Source: Deltaproteobacteria bacterium RIFOXYA12_FULL_61_11 (GTDB lineage: Bacteria > Bdellovibrionota_F > JAHFAK01 > YA12-FULL-61-11). Taken from it: 11,962 nucleotides of DNA. The notes beneath the pieces are model-generated. The model was not told the origin of the DNA. It did no database searches and worked only from the letters and a program-made list of their open reading frames with translations. Below are positions 1 to 11,755 of the stretch, piece by piece. The translations under genes were made by a program, and so were the position numbers. The DNA is taken from contig MGSU01000106.1 in assembly GCA_001799195.1 (NCBI GenBank), positions 1 through 11,962 on the forward strand, given 5' to 3'. Numbering within the stretch: position 1 is the stretch's first letter; every line of letters starts with the position of its first letter.

Positions 1-1519
1 CGGTCCAGACCAGACTCGCCGATCCGAGATAGGTGCTCGTGGTCCATACCTCGGGCGGGGTGATCCCGGTCCCGGCCGGCAAGGCATCCAAGAGCAGGTG
101 GTCGAGCTCGCCGAAGGTGGCCAACCCGAGCACTTCCCTCCGGGTCGGGAGCCGCCAGGCCGAGGGCTCCTCGAGGGCCAAGGAACTGCAAGCAGCGGTG
201 GCGGCCGCGAGATCGAGACCGCCGGCGGGATCGCCGAGCGCCCAGCGGTGGTCGGTGGTGCGGTCCAGGAACTGGTTGTCGTATTCGACAAGCTCCCAGG
301 GAGCTTTCTGGGTCATACCGAGATGCATCCGGCGTTCGGGGCTCAGGGACGCACAATCGATGAGGGAGTGATCGTCGTGACAGGTGGAGAGGCCGGTCCC
401 CTGGATCGGGGGGACAGAGGCGATCTCGAGGTGTACCTGGCTGGTCGAGCATCGCCTCGGATGTCCGTTGTCGCAGGCGCGTAGGGTGATGGTCGAGGTG
501 GTACCCGCGGCGTCGGTCGGAGGGTCGAACACGAGGTATTGATTGACCAAGCGAGCATAGGTGGGTAGCTGCGGGCTGGTCACTTGGAGGAGCTCTGAGG
601 GATCATCGCTGACCTCAAGCAGGTGCAAGGTGGTGACCCGAGGGAAGACCTCGAGGGTGGCGACGTCGTTCCAGGAAGGCGGCCCATCGGTCGGTTTGGG
701 GCGAGAGATCGCGTCTCGCAGCAATAACGGAGAGGTGTGGTCGAGGCTCACCTCTCCGAGGGATCTGATCGGAGCCGTAATGAGGAGGAGATCTAGGCGT
801 GGGGAGGAGAACTCACCGTCGAGATCGCACGCGGCGTGCAGAGTGGGAGCATCGTCGGAGGTGTCGGTGCCGCGTGAGAGTGGACAGAGCGCGTGGAAGG
901 TCTCTTCGCCGCTGTGGACCAACACGGTGGCCAGGAGGGCCACGGTACCTTCGTCGAGTGGGTCGGTTTTGTCCGGGCGGAAGTCTTTCGCCGTCGCGAG
1001 GAAGCCTTGCCCTGTCAGGAGGGCACTGGGGAGGGCTGCGGCAGGGAGCGCAGCGCTGGGTAAGGCGGCGGCGGGCAGGGCTGCTGCGGGGAGTGCGGCG
1101 AGAGTAGTGGTGTCGACGAGGTGGAGTGAGGCCGAGGGGGGGAGGTTCTCGGGGAGGACGGTGACCGGTAGCGAGAGGCCGAGAGTATCGCGCTGCAGGG
1201 AACGCTCTCCGGTCGCCGTGACCGAGACCAGCGCGGCCACGGACCCTCCAGCGGGCATCCCGACGTCGAGACCAGCTTGCCGCGCCGCGTCGGCAGCGTC
1301 GGCGCCGAGGGAACGCTCGACCGTGACCCCTCCGGTCTCCTCGGAGAGGGCAGAGGGGAGCTGTACGAGCAGGTCCAGGTCGGTGTGGCCGAGGTCGATG
1401 TTGCCGGAGTGAGAGGGGTCGGCCGTGGTATCGGAGGGTTGGGCCGACTTCGAGGCATCACAACCGCTCAGGGCGAAGATGAACAGGCCAAGGTAAAGAA
1501 CGTGAAGCAGTGTTGCCAC
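1..1519 (-). CDS. Secreted lipoprotein with DUF1566/Lcl-C-like domain (3' end beyond window)
   Basis: I read this frame directly on the minus strand: it is open for 506 codons from a GTG at 1517-1519 to the window edge. The start follows GGAGG at a normal distance. Residues 1-19 form a hydrophobic signal peptide ending in LSGC, a textbook lipobox, so Cys20 should be lipidated and the protein anchored in a membrane. Residues about 145-170 are a low-complexity Ala/Leu/Pro repeat (ALPAAALPSA type). A beta-rich stretch with a Cys pair (ACDNG...RRC) lies around residues 345-365. From about residue 410 comes a DUF1566-like domain: FLDRTTDHRW, then WRLPTRREV with its Trp at 455, then EVWTTSTY. DUF1566 domains occur in secreted or surface proteins and in Legionella Lcl adhesin; molecular function is generally unknown. 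The C-terminus is missing. It lies 178 bp downstream of the repeat-protein gene on the same strand and may be cotranscribed or use its own promoter. Function is not assigned beyond export. Confidence 0.85.
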   Translation of the reverse strand, partial: MATLLHVLYLGLFIFALSGCDASKSAQPSDTTADPSHSGNIDLGHTDLDLLVQLPSALSEETGGVTVERSLGADAADAARQAGLDVGMPAGGSVAALVSVTATGERSLQRDTLGLSLPVTVLPENLPPSASLHLVDTTTLAALPAAALPAAALPSAALPAAALPSALLTGQGFLATAKDFRPDKTDPLDEGTVALLATVLVHSGEETFHALCPLSRGTDTSDDAPTLHAACDLDGEFSSPRLDLLLITAPIRSLGEVSLDHTSPLLLRDAISRPKPTDGPPSWNDVATLEVFPRVTTLHLLEVSDDPSELLQVTSPQLPTYARLVNQYLVFDPPTDAAGTTSTITLRACDNGHPRRCSTSQVHLEIASVPPIQGTGLSTCHDDHSLIDCASLSPERRMHLGMTQKAPWELVEYDNQFLDRTTDHRWALGDPAGGLDLAAATAACSSLALEEPSAWRLPTRREVLGLATFGELDHLLLDALPAGTGITPPEVWTTSTYLGSASLVWT

Positions 1520-1696: not shown

Positions 1697-2431
1697 TCAG
1701 CAACCGCCACAAAGTTCGCAAGCGAGATCCGGGTCGAGATCGCCGTCCACGGTGGAGGTTGCACCATCGGTCGGCGACATGCGATAACAGACATCGCGGG
1801 AGGGATGGCTGTTGGAGCCATTGCCCCATTCCCAGCGGCAACCACCGCAGAGCTGACAAGCTTCTTCTGCATCGAGATCACCGTCCACGGTGGCTGTCGC
1901 GCCATCGGTCGCGGACATGAGGTAACACACATCGCGAGTGGGGTGGCTATTGGAGCCATTGCCCCAAGCCCAACGGCAACCACCGCAGAGTCGGCAAGCC
2001 AACTCGGGATCCAGATCGCCGTCCACGGTGTGGGTGGCACCATCGGTCGCGGACATGAGGTAACACACATCGCGAGTGGGGTGGCTGTTGGAGCCATTGC
2101 CCCATTCCCAACGGCAACCGCCACAGGTGGTGCAGGCAGCGAGGGGGTCAATATCTCCATCAATGGTATCAACCGCACCACCGGTCGCCGACATGCGATA
2201 GCAGACATCACGAGTGGGGTTGCTATTGGAGCCGTTACCCCATTCCCAGCGGCAACCGCTTTCAGCATTCCCATAGGGGTAGAGCGTGAGGTCGAGGTTG
2301 TAGAGTTCATCAAGTGCCGGAGTGCTGGGAATACTCCCTTCCTCACCCGTGCAGGCGATAGAAGCACCAAAGCCGAGGGCAACCAGTGCGATCATGCTGA
2401 TGATGGAGCCCAGAAAACGGATGTGGTCCAT
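1697..2431 (-). CDS. Exported Cys/Trp-rich protein of four 46-residue tandem repeats
   Basis: The product has 244 residues; the ATG is preceded by GGAGGTG at a good distance. Residues 1 to about 27 are a signal peptide with a hydrophobic core, ending GASIAC. Cys27 could be a lipidation site, but Ser at -3 is a poor lipobox, so simple secretion is also possible. After an acidic linker, residues 59-242 are four exact repeats of 46 residues. Each reads GCRWxWGNGSNS, x-P-x-R-DVCY, M-S-x-T-x-GA, then an acidic DGDxD segment and ACxxC. The chain stops two residues into a fifth copy (GGC, stop). Each repeat has four cysteines, two tryptophans and a cluster of aspartates, suggesting a disulfide-linked bead, perhaps binding Ca2+; that is inference. 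I do not recognise the family. It is upstream of another exported protein on the same strand. An alternative idea is a multi-core precursor peptide, but no modification or protease gene is adjacent. Confidence 0.85.
   Translation of the reverse strand: MDHIRFLGSIISMIALVALGFGASIACTGEEGSIPSTPALDELYNLDLTLYPYGNAESGCRWEWGNGSNSNPTRDVCYRMSATGGAVDTIDGDIDPLAACTTCGGCRWEWGNGSNSHPTRDVCYLMSATDGATHTVDGDLDPELACRLCGGCRWAWGNGSNSHPTRDVCYLMSATDGATATVDGDLDAEEACQLCGGCRWEWGNGSNSHPSRDVCYRMSPTDGATSTVDGDLDPDLACELCGGC
1700..2251. repeat. Four tandem 138-bp repeats inside the repeat-protein gene
   Basis: The landmark GCAACC (plus strand) recurs at 1700, 1838, 1976, 2114 and 2252, always 138 bp apart, so the reading frame is kept. 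Units 2 and 3 share an uninterrupted block of more than 40 identical bases around 1894-1940 and 2032-2078, encoding the DVCYLMSATDG core. Differences concentrate in the part encoding the ACxxC region and the residues after MSATDGA. Near-identity at the base level points to duplication, with possible gene conversion. Confidence 0.95.
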
Positions 2432-2469
2432 AAGGCACCTCCAGGAGTTGTGATCTCACCTCTAAGCAA

Positions 2470-2498
2470 GCTATATGCCGGATATAATATATTGTAAA
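2470..2498 (-). promoter_or_regulatory. Candidate promoter for the repeat-protein gene
   Basis: On the minus strand TTTACA (2493-2498) is followed after 17 bp by TATAGC (2470-2475), matching 5/6 and 4/6 of the sigma70 consensus, in the most A+T-rich patch of the left part. Transcription would begin near 2463, leaving a leader of about 30 nt with the ribosome site. Confidence 0.45.
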
Positions 2499-4125: not shown

Positions 4126-4189
4126 AGTGTTTTCCACCCCGAGGGGGCGGATGCCCATCGGGAAGGAGCGTTATACAGGGAGGGGTCGT

Positions 4190-5386
4190 ATGGATCATCG
4201 ACGGCTGGCCGAGGGGTATCGCGAGGATTGCGTGCGCTTTCTGCGGGAGTTGATCAAGCTGCCGAGCGAGAGCGCCCAGGAGAAAACGGTGGCCGAGCGG
4301 ATCAAAGCCGAGATGGAGCACCTCGGATTCGACGAGGCGTTCATCGACGACTATGGCAATGTCATCGGTCGCATCGGCCATGGACCGGTGCGGCTGGTCT
4401 ATGACGGGCATATCGACACGGTCGGTATCGGCAACCCGACCTCGTGGAGCTACGACCCTTATAAAGGAAAGCTCGAAGACGGTTTTATCTTCGGCCGCGG
4501 GGCCTCGGACAACAAACAGGCCCCCGTGGTCCAGGTCTACGGGGCCAAGCTCTTCGCCGACCACGGTGGCGCGAAGAGCCGCTTCAGCCTCTTCGTGGTG
4601 GGTTCGGTCCAAGAGGAAGATTGCGACGGACTCGGTCTGCGGCACGCCCTGGAACGCACCCTCGGCAAAGTCGACTACGTCTGCATCGGCGAGGCCACGA
4701 ATCTCGACGTGTACCGCGGTCATCGAGGAAGGATGGAGATCGAGGTCGAAGCCCGGGGTATCTCCTGTCACGGTTCCGCCCCGGAGCGCGGGGACAATGC
4801 CATCTACCGCATGTTGCCCCTGGTCGGGGATATCGAGCGTCTCAACGAACGCTTGGCCCAGGACGCTTTCCTGGGCAAGGGGACCTGCACCGTGACCCAC
4901 ATCGCCTGTAAGACCCCCAGCCTGTGCGCGGTACCGGACAGTTGCCGTATCCACGTCGACCGGCGCTTGACCAAGGGCGAGACCAAGGACAGCGCGCTGC
5001 AGGAGATACGCGACCTGCCGGGTTTCGATGCCGAGAAGATGACCCTCGAACTCCCGGTTTACGATACGCCGTCGCACACGGGGAAGGTGCTGACCACCGA
5101 GAAGTATTTCCCGACCTGGGTCCTACCCGAGGACCATGCCCTGGTTCGCGCCGGGGTTGAGGCCGCGACCAAGGCCTTGGGACGCAAACCCGGGGTGAGC
5201 AAGTGGGTCTTCAGCACCAATGGTATCGCCAGTATGGGGCAGCTCGGCATTCCCAGCATCGGGTTCGGACCGGGCAACGAGGTCGATGCCCACTCGGTCA
5301 ACGATAGGGTCCGCATCGAGGACCTGGTGACCGCGGTGGCCTATTATGCAGCCCTTCCCGACGCGTTGGCCGGCCACCTCGCTTGA
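4190..5386 (+). CDS. ygeY: M20-family hydrolase, YgeY selenium-metabolism type
   Basis: The 398-residue product is an M20/ArgE/DapE-type metallohydrolase. Visible metal and catalytic residues are His74 and Asp76 in YDGHIDTV, Asp107 in FGRGASDNK, the Glu142-Glu143 pair in QEED, Glu168 in GEATN, and the last ligand His368 in VDAHSVNDRV. His194 in SCHGSAPERG is the usual dimer-interface histidine. The overall pattern, especially YREDCVRFLRELIKLPSES and the C-terminal GFGPGNEVDAHSVND, fits the YgeY family (TIGR03526), whose genes accompany selenium-dependent molybdenum hydroxylases; the substrate is not established. I start at 4190 because GGGAGGGG lies six bases upstream and the family begins near this point. 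In-frame ATGs at 4127 and 4169 would add an unlikely 7-21 residues. It is the first gene of a two-gene unit, 53 bp ahead of the hydroxylase. Cytosolic. Confidence 0.88.
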   Translation: MDHRRLAEGYREDCVRFLRELIKLPSESAQEKTVAERIKAEMEHLGFDEAFIDDYGNVIGRIGHGPVRLVYDGHIDTVGIGNPTSWSYDPYKGKLEDGFIFGRGASDNKQAPVVQVYGAKLFADHGGAKSRFSLFVVGSVQEEDCDGLGLRHALERTLGKVDYVCIGEATNLDVYRGHRGRMEIEVEARGISCHGSAPERGDNAIYRMLPLVGDIERLNERLAQDAFLGKGTCTVTHIACKTPSLCAVPDSCRIHVDRRLTKGETKDSALQEIRDLPGFDAEKMTLELPVYDTPSHTGKVLTTEKYFPTWVLPEDHALVRAGVEAATKALGRKPGVSKWVFSTNGIASMGQLGIPSIGFGPGNEVDAHSVNDRVRIEDLVTAVAYYAALPDALAGHLA

Positions 5387-5439
5387 CCCTCTCCCCTCTG
5401 TGACGGATCCCCCTCTCTTTCGGCGGCAAGGACTTCGAG

Positions 5440-8043
5440 GTGACCATGCGTTTCAGGCTCAATGGTGCAGAGGTCGAGTATTCCGGTCCTGCCGACCGGA
5501 CCCTCTTGGTCTTCCTGCGCGAAGAACGCGGTCTGCGCAGCCTCAAGAACGGTTGTTCCGAGGGGGCCTGTGGTTGCTGTACGGTCCAGCTCGGAGCCCG
5601 CGCGGTCCTGGCCTGTCGTACCCCTATGAACCGGGTCGACGGCCGAGAAGTGCGGACGCTGGAAGGTTTTACGGAGCGGCAACGGGCTGTCTTCGCCCGG
5701 GCTTTTCTCCTGACGGGAGGGGTGCAGTGCGGTTTCTGCACGCCGGGTATCGTGGTCAGGGTCAAGGTGCTGCTGGACCACCATCCTGATCCTCGGCCCG
5801 AGGAGGTGCGAGAGGCCCTCGCTCCTCATCTGTGCCGTTGCACCGGGTACGTCAAGATCGTCGAGGCCGCGCTCCTGGCTGCCCGCTTGCTGCGCGAAGG
5901 CGGGGACTTGCCCGAGGTGAGCGCCGAGGGTTTCATCGGGATCTTCTTGCCGAGGTACCAGGGCGAAGCCCTCGTCCTGGGTGAGCGAGCCTTCGTTCGC
6001 GATCTCAAGGTGCCGGGGATGCTCCACGGTGCGTTGCGTCTCGCCGATCACCCGCGCGCCGTGGTCCGACAGCTCCGCCTTTCCCCGGCTTTCACCGTCG
6101 AAGGGGTTCGCCGCATCTTCACCGCTCAGGACGTTCCCGGCGAGCGTTTGGTAGGGTCGATCGTCCGCGATTGGCCGGTCTTCGTGGCCGAAGGTGAGCT
6201 CACCCGTTGTGTTGGCGATGTCCTGGCTGGGGTCGTGGCGACCAGCGAGGAAGCGGCGCGGCGAGCCGCGGCGGCCATCGAAGTGGAGTACGAGGTCCTC
6301 CCGCCTGTGAGCGACGTCGAAACGGCGCTGGGGTCCGAGGCTCCGGTCCTGCACCTCGGCGGCAACCTGCTCTACGACCACGAGCTGGTCCGGGGCAGGC
6401 CCGAAGAGGCTCTGGAGGCCTCGGCCCATGTCGCCCGCGGGGTCTATCACACGCAACGGGTCGAGCACGCCTTCCTCGAACCCGAGGCAAGTCTCGCCGT
6501 GCCGGCTGCGAGCGGCTCGCCCCATCGCCTGACCGTGCATTCGCAGAGTCAGGGGGTGTATGAAGACCGCGCCGCGTTGGCCCGGCTGTTGGACCTACCC
6601 GAGCACCTGCTCAACGTGATCCAGGTCCCGGCGGGGGGGGCCTTCGGCGGCAAGGAGGACCTCACCGTGCAGGCCCATGCCGCGCTCTATGCCTTGCTCC
6701 TCCATGAACCGGTGATGGTCGCGCTCTCCCGCGAAGAATCGCTGCGCGTGCATCCCAAGCGCCACCCCATGACCCTCCGGTATGCTCTCGGTTGTGACGA
6801 TCGGGGTCGGTTGACCGCACTCGTCGCCGACATCCTTGCGGACACCGGGGCGTACGCCTCGGTCGGCATGAAGGTGGTCGAGCGCGCGCTCGGGCACTCC
6901 GCCGGGGCCTATGTCGTTCCCAACGTGCGGGTACGCGGCCGCGCGGTCTACACCAACAACCTCCCCTGTGGCGCCATGCGCGGTTTCGGGGTGCCGCAGG
7001 TCACCTTCGCCGTGGAAGGTTGTATCGACGAGTTGTGCGCCCAAGGCGGTTTTGACCGCTGGCAGTTCCGCTACGACAATGCGATTCGGGACGGCGAGCG
7101 CACCATCACCGGGCAGCGTCTCGACGCGGGTGTCGGACTGCGAAGAACGCTCGAGGCGGTGCGCGAGGACTTCACCTCGGCACGGTATGCGGGTATCGCC
7201 TGTGGCCTCAAGAACGTCGGCGTGGGTAACGGCAAGCCGGACATCGGCCGTTGCAAACTCTCGATCGTCGCTCCGGGCCGCGTGGTCCTGCATCATGGGT
7301 GGAGCGAGATGGGCCAGGGGCTCTCCACGGTCGCGATCCAGGCCCTGTGCCAAGAAACCGGGCTGAGCCCCTCGCAGTGCGAGGTCCGAGTCGAGACGGC
7401 CGAGGAGGTCAGAGCCGGGATGACGACCTCCTCGCGGGGTACCTCGCTGCTCGGTCATGGAATCATCGCCGCGAGCAAGTTCCTCTCCGCCGATCTTGCA
7501 CGGTATCCGCTGGCCGAGCTGGTCGGTCGGGAGTATCGCGGCGAGTGGGCTTGCGAGGACACTACCGCTCCGGAGGATGAGACCGACGAGCCGGTGACCC
7601 ACTATTCCTATGGGTATGCCACGCAGGTCGTCCTGCTCGACGACGAGGGGCGGATCGGACGAGTCCTGGCCGCCCACGATGTCGGGAGGGTGATCAACCC
7701 GGTGCAGCTCGAGGGCCAGCTCGAGGGCTCGATCCACATGGGTCTGGGGTATGCGCTCAGTGAGGAGCTCCGACTCGAGCAGAGTCGCCTAGTCTCGGAT
7801 AAGCTGGGGCGCTGCGGTGTGTTGCGGGCTTGGCAGATGCCGGCGGTCGAGGTGCGCCTCCTCGAGGTACCCGATCCCCGTGGGCCGTTCGGAGCGAAGG
7901 GTGTCGGGGAGATCGGGGTGGTACCCACGGCCGCTGCCGTGGCCTCTGCCTTGCGAGCCTATGACGGTATCCAACGCACGACGCTGCCCATCGCCGAGGA
8001 CCGTCTACCGCAGCGACAGCGTCTTCAATCGGGCAGGTTGTAA
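5440..8043 (+). CDS. Selenium-dependent xanthine dehydrogenase-type molybdenum hydroxylase (fused Fe-S/Mo protein)
   Basis: This protein of up to 867 residues fuses two parts of the xanthine oxidase family. Residues 1-90 are a plant-type ferredoxin domain with CSEGACGCC and a later Cys (Cys39, 44, 47, 59). Residues 90-150 hold the second [2Fe-2S] cluster, CGFC (97, 100) and CRC (132, 134). No FAD domain follows; the chain goes straight into the molybdopterin part, with GGAFGGKEDL, AMRGFGVPQ, GWSEMGQGL and, near the end, GAKGVGEIG, whose Glu824 matches the catalytic glutamate of xanthine oxidase. This layout and the YgeY neighbour fit the TIGR03311 and E. coli XdhD group, thought to carry a labile selenium atom on the Mo cofactor, not selenocysteine: no in-frame TGA is present. 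The substrate is probably a purine or other N-heterocycle. The start is GTG 5440 (AAGGA seven bases upstream) or ATG 5446 (GAGG five bases upstream). An FAD partner must be encoded elsewhere. Its end overlaps the convergent metalloprotease gene. Confidence 0.9.
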   Translation: MTMRFRLNGAEVEYSGPADRTLLVFLREERGLRSLKNGCSEGACGCCTVQLGARAVLACRTPMNRVDGREVRTLEGFTERQRAVFARAFLLTGGVQCGFCTPGIVVRVKVLLDHHPDPRPEEVREALAPHLCRCTGYVKIVEAALLAARLLREGGDLPEVSAEGFIGIFLPRYQGEALVLGERAFVRDLKVPGMLHGALRLADHPRAVVRQLRLSPAFTVEGVRRIFTAQDVPGERLVGSIVRDWPVFVAEGELTRCVGDVLAGVVATSEEAARRAAAAIEVEYEVLPPVSDVETALGSEAPVLHLGGNLLYDHELVRGRPEEALEASAHVARGVYHTQRVEHAFLEPEASLAVPAASGSPHRLTVHSQSQGVYEDRAALARLLDLPEHLLNVIQVPAGGAFGGKEDLTVQAHAALYALLLHEPVMVALSREESLRVHPKRHPMTLRYALGCDDRGRLTALVADILADTGAYASVGMKVVERALGHSAGAYVVPNVRVRGRAVYTNNLPCGAMRGFGVPQVTFAVEGCIDELCAQGGFDRWQFRYDNAIRDGERTITGQRLDAGVGLRRTLEAVREDFTSARYAGIACGLKNVGVGNGKPDIGRCKLSIVAPGRVVLHHGWSEMGQGLSTVAIQALCQETGLSPSQCEVRVETAEEVRAGMTTSSRGTSLLGHGIIAASKFLSADLARYPLAELVGREYRGEWACEDTTAPEDETDEPVTHYSYGYATQVVLLDDEGRIGRVLAAHDVGRVINPVQLEGQLEGSIHMGLGYALSEELRLEQSRLVSDKLGRCGVLRAWQMPAVEVRLLEVPDPRGPFGAKGVGEIGVVPTAAAVASALRAYDGIQRTTLPIAEDRLPQRQRLQSGRL

Positions 8044-8957
8044 CGCCAGGAGGGATCCGGTTCTTCGAAGGCCGGGGCCGGCCCGATCAATTCGTCGAGT
8101 CGCAGCAGGGCCTCCTCGGGTTGCTCGAAAGCCGTGGGCAGGTTCGAGGACGTCAGCGTGGTCAGGGTGTGGTCGATGTGTTCCGCGGAGAAGACTCCCT
8201 TGTTGTAGCGGTCGGGAGAGGTTCCGTCCAAGAAGGTGTGCAGCAGGTACCACATGGCCGGGTCCGAGCGGCGCAAACGACTGTCCTGGTCGTGGTAGGC
8301 GGCCAGGGACTCGGCGAAGTACTCGAGTTCATTGGTATTGGCATACTCGCTGACCGGATTCCCCAGAGCTCGACCTTCCTGGTGAGCGGCGTAGAGGTCG
8401 CCGATCCCGCCATTGCGCGAGAAATAGGTTCCCCAGCCGAAGCCATAGGTTTCCAACAGATCGTCGAGGGCATGGGCGGCCTCGTGCACGACCGGGTTCT
8501 CGACCTGATAATAGAGGATAAGGCTGTGATCCTGGGGTTGGTAAAAACCGTTGACCTTGGTGAGCAGGCTCCGGCAGGCGGCCAGGACCTCTCCGCGGGC
8601 AAAGACCTCGTTGCCCGGGAAGGCGTGGACCGCGAGTTTGTGCAGGGGAGCGCCGAGCGAGCGGAGGTACGCGGTCATGGGCTCGTCGAAGACGAGGAAG
8701 AAACGCTCTTCGAGCGTGGCGCGACGAGTGGTCGAGATAGGTCCGTAGAGGTGCAGCGGGACCTCGAGCCAGGGACGCGAGAGCACGCTCTCGACATGAT
8801 CCTCGCCGGTCGCGGCAGCTCGGAGGAAGGTCCGGGTCGTGGAGTAGCAGGTATCGACGACCTCGTCTTGATCGTCCAGACAAGCGCCGGTGCCCACGAA
8901 AGCCAAAACCAAGAAGGGGAGGGCGGTGATGAGGGGAAAGAACCTTGACCACACCAT
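8025..8957 (-). CDS. Putative secreted zinc metalloprotease (HExxH) lipoprotein
   Basis: With the start at 8957 (GAGG eight bases upstream) the product has 310 residues. An in-frame ATG at 9086 would put 43 residues before the signal peptide, so I reject it. Residues 1-25 form a signal peptide (MVWSRFFPLITALPFLVLAF) ending TGAC; Cys26 may be lipidated, though Thr at -3 is unusual. The catalytic motif is HEAAH at 158-162, followed by NELEYFAESLAAYH at 209-222, where Glu212 or Glu216 would be the third zinc ligand. HExxH followed by an ExxAE motif resembles the anthrax lethal factor-like (ATLF) and related gluzincin families, usually secreted proteases; I infer that relation from the motifs alone. 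The substrate is unknown. Its 3' end overlaps the convergent hydroxylase gene by 19 bp. It has no cotranscribed partner in the window. Confidence 0.8.
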   Translation of the reverse strand: MVWSRFFPLITALPFLVLAFVGTGACLDDQDEVVDTCYSTTRTFLRAAATGEDHVESVLSRPWLEVPLHLYGPISTTRRATLEERFFLVFDEPMTAYLRSLGAPLHKLAVHAFPGNEVFARGEVLAACRSLLTKVNGFYQPQDHSLILYYQVENPVVHEAAHALDDLLETYGFGWGTYFSRNGGIGDLYAAHQEGRALGNPVSEYANTNELEYFAESLAAYHDQDSRLRRSDPAMWYLLHTFLDGTSPDRYNKGVFSAEHIDHTLTTLTSSNLPTAFEQPEEALLRLDELIGPAPAFEEPDPSWRYNLPD

Positions 8958-9188
8958 GGTATCGACCTCAAACGTTACCCTTCCTAAGGTAAGAAACCCA
9001 TGCGGTTCACGGGATCCTCCACGAATTGCGGGCGAAGACAACGGGGCAAGCAATGTGCCGCATATAACAATCTGGTATTCCTTCAATAATCCGCGTCATG
9101 GTGGTGCCAACAGCGCACCGTGGTGCCGGCGAGGCACCTGCGATACGAGCCGATCGAGAGCGAGCCGTCGGCGGGAAGAAAGGTCTGT

Positions 9189-9532: not shown

Positions 9533-9847
9533 TTAGCCAACGGAAATAATGGCATCAAGATTGTAAAAATCGACCGTGCGCGCTACCTGCCGCGGGCCTA
9601 CCGTTTGAACTGTCTGGAATTTCCGGATAGTTGCCTCCCGCTGGAGTTCCCCCGACTCATAGACGTTTCGCACATGCTCTCTGCTGGTCTGCACATCCAC
9701 GGCGAAGAGTTCAGCCATCAGCTTCTGCGTCAGCCAGATGGTCTCGTCCTCGTAGCGGGCCTCGATGCTCTTTTCGCCAGCCTGGGCGGTGAACATGAGA
9801 AATTCCGTCGTCCTGTTGCGGATGAGCTTGGTAGTGTCTTCCGTCAT
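9533..9847 (-). pseudogene. N-terminal fragment of a RhuM-family protein
   Basis: The 104 codons match the start of RhuM-family proteins, usually about 330 residues: FTAQAGEKSIEARYEDETIW, LTQKLMAELFAVDVQTSREH (a helix-turn-helix-like segment), VRNVYESGELQREATIRKFQ and FYNLDAIISVG. Intact members continue with Y-R-V; here the next codon is TAA, and the TAAGGAG that follows already supplies the ribosome site of the PAS gene. So the last two thirds of the gene are gone and the breakpoint lies at about 9533-9536. RhuM proteins occur in pathogenicity and defence islands; their biochemical role is unclear. The start is 12 bp after the helicase stop, so the piece is cotranscribed with it. It may still be translated as a short DNA-binding-like fragment. 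Confidence 0.8.
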
Positions 9848-9859
9848 GGTGTTACTGTG

Positions 9860-11755
9860 TTAGTTCATCTTATCAAGAAATCGAGAGGGGATTTGGCTCT
9901 TGTTCTCACCCCATGGCATTAGTCGATTCTGGGGATAGGTGATGTAAATCCAACGCCTCGATCTGGTTAGAGCTACAAATGCGCTGTTTAGCTCTTCCTC
10001 AAGTTCTTTCGGGCTGCGGGCGCGATAATCTGGGAACACCCCTTCACACATGCCTATCAGGAAAACGATGTCTTTTTCTAAGCCTTTCATCGTATGAACG
10101 GTACTCAAAGTTAACCCAGAGGGATTAAATTCCTCCGCAAGTTGCCCCAACGCCATAGCATTACGGAATGCAGAAAGCGACTCCCCAAGTCCCTTTTGTC
10201 TGAAGGTTGTCCAACACTTCTTAAAATCGCCTAATTCTTGAAGAGAACGTTCTAGTTCTCTAGTTTTATCAAAATCTTGCGTTGCCACGAGAGCTTCTAC
10301 TAGCTTTTTAAAATCGGACACCAATTTTGGTATGTTAGGTTGCTCCAAGTCGAGTTGCTGAATAGCATCCAAAAGGTTTGCCTGTATCTCAGGGAAAGGA
10401 ACATCGGCATTTCTTACTGAGTTAGCAAACAAATTCAGCAGCCCAGGTCCACCCCAACGGGGTGGTGGTGAAATTTTCAGAGCCGCGCAAAGCTTCTTTC
10501 CGTCTACCCAGTCTTTAGGGTTGAGTTTCAGGCGGATTGCTAAATCAAGTATCTTACCAAAGAGGGAGGATGGCTCCACTTGGCGTTCACCCTTATTAAG
10601 TGTGAACGGAATCTGATGCTCCTTCAGTTTATCTTCCAACGCCCGGAAGACAAATCGGTTACGGGCAATAACAACCATGTTTTTCAAGGTTATTTCTCCC
10701 TTAATTTCAGAGCTGTTTTTTTCAATTAGCAATGTGCGAATTTGACTAGATATCCACTCAGCTTCCGCATCTTCATCCTGAAAATTTTTAATTTCCATAC
10801 GTCCAGAAAGCGCAGAATCTTTTTCAGCGGGTATCTGTGATCCTGGCTTCAGTTTGTTGGCAAGGTGAATTACCGCTTGCGAACTCCTGTAGTTTTCTTT
10901 TAGTTCATGTTTTTTTGGCTTGAAATCAACAACAAACTCATCGCAAAGAAAACGGGTGGAGGAACCATTGAATCCGTAAATCATCTGATCGGGAGCGCCG
11001 ACCATCATGACACTCTTGAGTTCCTCCGCACATAGAGCTTTGATGAACTCATACTGCGCCCTGTTCAAGTCCTGCGCTTCGTCCACGCAAAGATGTTTGT
11101 ACTTAGCGCGGTAAATCTGGCCGCACCAAGGCTGTTGAAGAAGTATGCGGTGTGCGTAAACTAAAATATCGTCGAAATCGATGCCGCCACCTTGGAGTAA
11201 AGCATCTTGGTAAGCCTGGTAAATGCCCCAGAAATTAGCATCATTGTACTTTTCCAAGGCATCCGTTTCAGCCAACAGTTCTCTTTTGACTACAGAGAAT
11301 TGGTCCAAGTAGTTATGGATGATTTTTTCGCGCTCTTTTGTATCGCGTTCGTTCGGAACATTCAGCAATGCGTCAATGTCTATTACGCTATCTCGTAACG
11401 AATGCAAAAAAACTGTCTTGCGATCCTGGTCGCGTTCGTAAATGTGCAATTCGGTTGGCAGGCCAATCGTGTGGCCATATTGACTGAGAATCCGTTGAGC
11501 CACTGTGTGGATCGTGCCAATCCAGCACCGCTGTTCAATTTCTTCGATGTCAGCCAAGCGGGCTTGCATTTCTTCCGCAGCTTTGTTGGTGAAGGTCAAC
11601 GCAATGATGCCATCTTTGCGAGTGTTTTTTAGGATGTGGCGGATTCGTTCGGTCAAAACGCGAGTTTTTCCAGAGCCAGCCGATGCGAGGACTTGCAATG
11701 GCTGACCAATGGGGGCATTGACAATAGCAGATTGAGCGGGAGATAAGTTGATCAT
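9860..11755 (-). CDS. UvrD/Rep-family (SF1A) DNA helicase, probably the helicase of a Gabija-like pair
   Basis: The 631-residue product has the full set of SF1A helicase motifs: Q motif LSPAQSAIVNAP (4-15), Walker A ASAGSGKT (24-31), motif Ia ALTFTNKAAEEM (52-63), motif II DEAQ (225-228), motif III VGAPDQMIYGF (252-262), motif IV ENYRSSQAVI, motif V STVHTMKGLE (from 551) and motif VI ALTRSRRW (596-603). It translocates or unwinds DNA with ATP. Motif III has Ala-Pro-Asp where UvrD/PcrA have Gly-Asp-x-Asp. It is shorter than UvrD (about 720). Its ATG overlaps the stop of an upstream gene as ATGA, and GAGGA lies eight bases before. That arrangement, the length and the low GC recall GajB of Gabija systems or the helicase beside class 2 OLD nucleases; this subfamily call is inference. 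The A+T-rich composition contrasts strongly with the left part, a sign of transfer. The reading frame is intact. Confidence 0.88.
   Translation of the reverse strand: MINLSPAQSAIVNAPIGQPLQVLASAGSGKTRVLTERIRHILKNTRKDGIIALTFTNKAAEEMQARLADIEEIEQRCWIGTIHTVAQRILSQYGHTIGLPTELHIYERDQDRKTVFLHSLRDSVIDIDALLNVPNERDTKEREKIIHNYLDQFSVVKRELLAETDALEKYNDANFWGIYQAYQDALLQGGGIDFDDILVYAHRILLQQPWCGQIYRAKYKHLCVDEAQDLNRAQYEFIKALCAEELKSVMMVGAPDQMIYGFNGSSTRFLCDEFVVDFKPKKHELKENYRSSQAVIHLANKLKPGSQIPAEKDSALSGRMEIKNFQDEDAEAEWISSQIRTLLIEKNSSEIKGEITLKNMVVIARNRFVFRALEDKLKEHQIPFTLNKGERQVEPSSLFGKILDLAIRLKLNPKDWVDGKKLCAALKISPPPRWGGPGLLNLFANSVRNADVPFPEIQANLLDAIQQLDLEQPNIPKLVSDFKKLVEALVATQDFDKTRELERSLQELGDFKKCWTTFRQKGLGESLSAFRNAMALGQLAEEFNPSGLTLSTVHTMKGLEKDIVFLIGMCEGVFPDYRARSPKELEEELNSAFVALTRSRRWIYITYPQNRLMPWGENKSQIPSRFLDKMN

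What the first reader, a model, noticed from the sequence alone, without database searches (positions are those of the whole stretch)
1697..2431. Unrecognised exported protein of four exact 46-residue Cys/Trp/Asp repeats
Each repeat has four Cys, the block WxWGNGSNS, the block DVCYxMSxTxGA and an acidic DGDxD segment before ACxxC. I recall no named family with this signature. Exact periodicity, a signal peptide and a good promoter and ribosome site argue for a real, expressed beads-on-a-string surface or secreted protein.
Basis: partly seen in the sequence, partly recalled or inferred. Interest (0 to 1): 0.65.

Follow-up and report, generated by a model that had tools for sequence, protein, structure and literature searches.

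The report
Orphan four-repeat cysteine-rich exported lipoprotein
A bacterium from a barely sampled phylum carries a real gene for a small exported, probably lipid-anchored protein made of four near-identical 46-residue cysteine-rich beads that match no known family; what it binds is unknown.

Summary
Window 2431-1697 (minus strand) encodes 244 aa: a signal peptide, a short linker and four tandem repeats of exactly 46 aa (aa 60-243, plus Cys244). In each repeat 31 of 46 positions are identical in all four. The frame is genuine: between repeats, synonymous sites are near saturation while the protein is kept (dN/dS 0.13), codon usage is host-like, and GGAGGT lies five bases before the ATG. The 'good promoter' is only a degenerate TTTACA-N17-TATAGC. 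The signal peptide ends in a lipobox-like ASIAC, so a lipoprotein is more likely than a free secreted protein.

No named family matches (Pfam, NCBIfam, PHROGs, PDB sequences); DUF4215, the nearest look-alike, was tested and rejected. No homologue turned up in 85,000 GTDB species contigs, IMG/VR, phages, plasmids or about 580 whole genomes. The array occurs once in its genome; its phylum has two held genomes. Structure prediction failed (pLDDT 38-48).

Best reading: an envelope lipoprotein of four disulfide-stapled modules acting as a multivalent binder. The genome encodes two VKOR-family frames, so disulfides are plausible. The binding role and ligand are inferred. A real orphan family, of a familiar kind.

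The parts
1697..2431 (-). CDS, 244 aa, exported four-repeat Cys-rich protein
   Evidence: ORF, translation, pooled dN/dS 0.13 between repeats, host-like codon usage
2351..2431 (-). signal peptide with lipobox-like ASIA-C27 (aa 1-27)
   Evidence: sequence; fits the PROSITE PS51257-type pattern
2255..2350 (-). linker TGEEGSIPSTPALDELYNLDLTLYPYGNAESG (aa 28-59)
   Evidence: translation
2117..2254 (-). repeat 1 (46 aa), the most diverged
1979..2116 (-). repeat 2 (46 aa)
1841..1978 (-). repeat 3 (46 aa)
1703..1840 (-). repeat 4 (46 aa), followed by terminal Cys244 and stop
2437..2442 (-). Shine-Dalgarno GGAGGT, 5 nt before ATG
2470..2498 (-). weak promoter-like TTTACA-N17-TATAGC
   Evidence: read by eye, checked; not found by the consensus scan
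2..1519 (-). downstream lipoprotein gene (LSGC lipobox, degenerate Lcl_C/DUF1566 domain near its end), runs off the contig; possible operon partner
   Evidence: ORF open at contig end; Lcl_C E 4.8e-4, below cut-off

Best explanation
The gene makes an exported protein, probably a lipoprotein of the cell envelope: the signal peptide is cut before Cys27, which is lipidated, a 32-residue linker follows, and four 46-residue modules are displayed in series. Each module is stapled by disulfides among its Cys (positions 1, 18, 41, 44 and the next module's Cys 1), made by the host's VKOR-family enzymes with their DsbA-like parts. The invariant WxWGNGSNS loop and the acidic DGDxD segment form the working face (aromatic/amide loop, perhaps with a bound cation), repeated four times to bind a repetitive ligand such as a polysaccharide or another envelope component by avidity. 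Shown: coding, the repeats, purifying selection, a signal-peptide sequence, and host disulfide enzymes by homology. Inferred: lipidation, disulfide pairing, binding function, ligand.
For: Purifying selection on the repeat protein: pooled dN/dS 0.13, single pairs 0.09-0.17, dS up to about 2. Best codon score of six frames. Ribosome site and signal peptide with lipobox-like C27. The invariant residues are the Cys, Trp, Gly/Asn loop and Asp segment, while variable positions are scattered. Two VKOR matches over the cut-off in the same genome, both frames continuing into a thioredoxin-like part with CPAC or CPHC (read by eye). The neighbouring gene is also a lipoprotein by its signal. The mature chain is acidic, pI 4.1, and the protein has no lysine.
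Against: The lipobox is weak (Ser at -3). If C27 is lipidated the mature chain has 17 other Cys, an odd number, so one is free or pairs between molecules. No confident structure. No direct evidence of ligand binding. A single gene in a single incomplete genome.
Confidence: 0.5

Rival explanations
1. A metal-sequestering or metal-storing envelope protein: the CxxCxxC clusters at module borders (C41, C44, C47) plus C18 and the Asp segment hold Zn, Cu or another metal, in a treble-clef-like hairpin-helix module or a metallothionein-like array.
For: CxxCGGC at each module border; low-confidence models repeatedly place a beta-hairpin then a helix that carries the CxxC.
Against: A Sec-type signal into an envelope with two VKOR-family oxidases favours disulfides. 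No fold match. Model confidence too low to use.
Confidence: 0.2
2. Structural spacer or decoration protein of the cell surface without specific ligand, for example a rigid stalk.
For: Uniform modules in series, strict 46-aa period.
Against: The strictest conservation lies in a Gly/Asn/Ser loop next to Trp, not expected for a mere spacer.
Confidence: 0.18
3. A multi-core precursor of small peptides: each repeat ends in GG, and cutting there would release four near-identical 46-residue Cys-rich peptides.
For: Every repeat ends CxxCGG followed by Cys.
Against: Selection conserves the whole repeat, with no hypervariable core. It has a Sec/lipoprotein-type N-terminus and not a cytoplasmic leader. 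No maturation enzyme or transporter was recognised in the window. GG-peptidases were not searched for genome-wide.
Confidence: 0.07
4. The repeat ORF is a by-product: the antisense or another overlapping open frame is the real gene.
For: Long open frames on + (1637-2497) and on - (1618-2382) overlap it. The antisense frame with aligned wobble positions also has low dN/dS, 0.205.
Against: The described frame has the lowest dN/dS, highest dS and the best codon score of six frames (0.064 against -0.085 for the antisense frame, others below -0.3), plus a strong ribosome site and a signal peptide. No such features were seen for the other frames.
Confidence: 0.03

Closest known systems
DUF4215 / myxococcal Cys-rich repeat (Pfam PF13948)
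   Same: Exported tandem Cys-rich repeat of about 47 aa with GNG, DGN and GDGCxxxC elements; found in the class-mate genome G001.
   Different: No Pfam match even at E 10, no PF13948 match in the host genome, profile-profile probability 2%. CDDGN and GDGC are absent; Cys spacing differs.
Lcl_C / DUF1566 lipoproteins (Pfam PF07603)
   Same: The neighbour downstream is a lipoprotein by its signal with a degenerate Lcl_C domain, and the host has ten Lcl_C matches. So the gene may sit among surface lipoproteins.
   Different: P0001 itself has no Lcl_C match.
Generic disulfide-stapled tandem-repeat surface proteins (EGF-like, Kazal-like and similar)
   Same: Works like them in outline: small Cys-rich modules in series (from general knowledge).
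   Different: No Pfam model of any such domain matches; resemblance is of design only.

Membership tests
DUF4215 (PF13948) | Match to the Pfam model | tested here: not met
   No match of the protein or of single repeats up to E 10; no match in the host genome
DUF4215 (PF13948) | CDDGN...GDGCxxxC core | tested here: not met
   Absent from all four repeats; hhalign against 14 DUF4215 repeats gives probability 2%
Bacterial lipoprotein | Signal peptide with lipobox ending in Cys | tested here: inconclusive
   Fits the PROSITE-type pattern, but -3 is Ser; two neighbours' boxes are LSGC and TGAC
Bacterial lipoprotein | Lipid on Cys27 | not testable with these tools
   Needs labelling or mass spectrometry
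Disulfide-rich tandem-repeat protein | Conserved Cys pattern in each repeat of an exported protein | tested here: met
   Cys 1, 18, 41, 44 invariant in four repeats
Disulfide-rich tandem-repeat protein | Cys paired in disulfides | not testable with these tools
   Host has two VKOR-family frames, but pairing itself is untested; models unreliable
Multi-core RiPP precursor | Maturation enzymes and a cytoplasmic leader | tested here: not met
   No such enzyme recognised in the 12-kb window, the rest of the genome was not searched; N-terminus is a signal peptide

The most novel reading that the evidence does not exclude
A new small-domain fold (about 46 residues, Cys 1/18/41/44 with a WxWGNGSNS loop and an acidic segment) with its own ligand- or metal-binding chemistry, restricted to an almost unsampled phylum and displayed in four copies on the cell surface.
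Probability: 0.2. Interest if true: 0.5.

Novelty: new variant of a known kind. Interest (0 to 1): 0.32.

Why it matters
It is a well-supported protein-coding orphan: the repeats themselves supply the evolutionary test that single orphans lack. If the module is a new fold or binding domain, it would add a small disulfide scaffold from a poorly sampled lineage. Otherwise it is one more unclassified envelope protein.

Tried and rejected
AlphaFold2 on the whole protein (pLDDT 37.6) and on two modules with a 3-row alignment of the repeats (47.7): too poor to use. Foldseek of the second model: nothing below E 1, prob under 0.1. Weak Shadoo (E 0.021, below cut-off) and DnaJ (E 0.49) hits: read as chance matches of low-complexity or CxxC stretches. 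DUF4215: rejected. Weak hits of the repeat profile in the own genome (L006, L007) and in G035 and G173 read as chance: unrelated frames, one with a stop inside, one a 14-residue match. 21 genome contigs matching the degenerate WGNGx7DxCY DNA pattern: none repeat-like, fewer than the roughly 30 I estimate by chance. One family scan included a mistyped stretch (window:57-152:-), which is not part of the gene and is not used. Paper searches gave nothing on this signature.

Full report
Observation. On the minus strand, window 2431-1697 encodes 244 residues: a signal peptide (aa 1-27), a linker (28-59) and four repeats of exactly 46 aa (60-243) closed by Cys244. TRF reports the 138-bp array. Thirty-one of 46 positions are identical in all four repeats.

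Is it a gene? Nucleotide differences between repeats fall mostly on third codon positions. dN/dS pooled over pairs is 0.13 in this frame, with dS 1.1; single pairs give 0.09-0.17. With the same number of random substitutions, none of 5,000 trials had as few amino-acid changes, in each of three pairs tested. The only other frame with a low ratio is the antisense frame whose wobble bases coincide (0.205). Codon scores favour the described frame over all five others. GGAGGT lies five bases before the ATG. The consensus promoter scan was empty; by eye there is TTTACA-N17-TATAGC, so the promoter claim is weak.

Location and chemistry. The signal peptide ends ASIA-C27, fitting the PROSITE-type lipobox pattern though with Ser at -3. 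Two neighbouring exported proteins have LSGC and TGAC. A Sec-type lipoprotein is likely, not shown. The genome has two VKOR matches over the family cut-off, and both frames continue into a thioredoxin-like part with CPAC or CPHC (that part read by eye). Disulfide formation in the envelope is therefore plausible.

Relatives. No match above cut-off in Pfam, NCBIfam, PHROGs, PADLOC or PDB sequences. No homologue in GTDB r220 contigs, IMG/VR (17, 23, 45), phages, plasmids, or some 580 whole genomes (11, 19, 24, 58, 66, 67; the own genome served as positive control in 11, 19 and 24). The contig scans rest on short patterns, and records of the window's own or very near genomes may be left out of them. 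The array occurs once in its own genome. The window's phylum has only two held genomes, so absence elsewhere may mainly reflect poor sampling. The high dS between repeats means the array is not recent, so relatives should exist in unsampled lineages (inference). The organism could not be named with the tools used.

Structure. Two AlphaFold2 runs were unreliable. Both place a hairpin around DVCYxMS...TVD and a helix at DPxLACxL in most repeats, which is only a hint. Foldseek found nothing.

Known families. DUF4215 shares a period near 47 and GNG/GDG/Cys elements and occurs in the class-mate genome, so it was tested: no Pfam match up to E 10 and hhalign probability 2%. Not a member. The downstream gene is a lipoprotein by its signal, runs off the contig and has a degenerate Lcl_C domain; the genome has ten Lcl_C matches. 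Lcl_C/DUF1566 proteins can be targets of diversity-generating retroelements (PMC4159848), but no RVT_1 match was found in this 87%-complete genome.

Mechanism. I favour a lipid-anchored string of four disulfide-stapled modules whose invariant WxWGNGSNS loop and acidic segment bind a repetitive ligand by avidity (0.5). Coding, repeats, selection and a signal-peptide sequence are shown; lipidation, disulfides and binding are inferred. Rivals are metal binding, a spacer, and a multi-core peptide precursor.

Verdict. Real, matching no described family, and confined to one genome in the collections searched, but of a familiar design. Interest 0.32.

Noticed in passing
window 9860-11755 (-): UvrD-like helicase matching PADLOC's GajB model (Gabija) at 885 bits, in a low-GC3 stretch (0.47 against about 0.79 in neighbours); a GajA partner is not in the window and the contig ends at 11962.
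   Followed up: partly
window 9533-9847 (-): 104-aa frame matching the N-terminal part of RhuM / PADLOC PDC-S05 models, beside the GajB-like gene; shorter than the models.
   Followed up: partly
window 4127-8043 (+): YgeY hydrolase and selenium-dependent xanthine dehydrogenase (TIGR03311, over cut-off) side by side, pointing to selenium-linked purine catabolism.
   Followed up: partly
window 8025-9086 (-): 353-aa frame with a signal-like stretch ending VGTGAC; weak below-cut-off Pfam matches to metallopeptidase families over a VHEAAHALDD region.
   Followed up: no
window 2-1519 (-): Lipoprotein-like frame with a degenerate Lcl_C domain and an AALPAAALP low-complexity stretch; ten Lcl_C matches in the genome, no RVT_1 reverse transcriptase found.
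   Followed up: partly
L043, + strand frame: Three tandem copies of a short Cys-containing unit (around ASCTPLEACFPAVTPTAF) in an open frame; not examined for coding.
   Followed up: no
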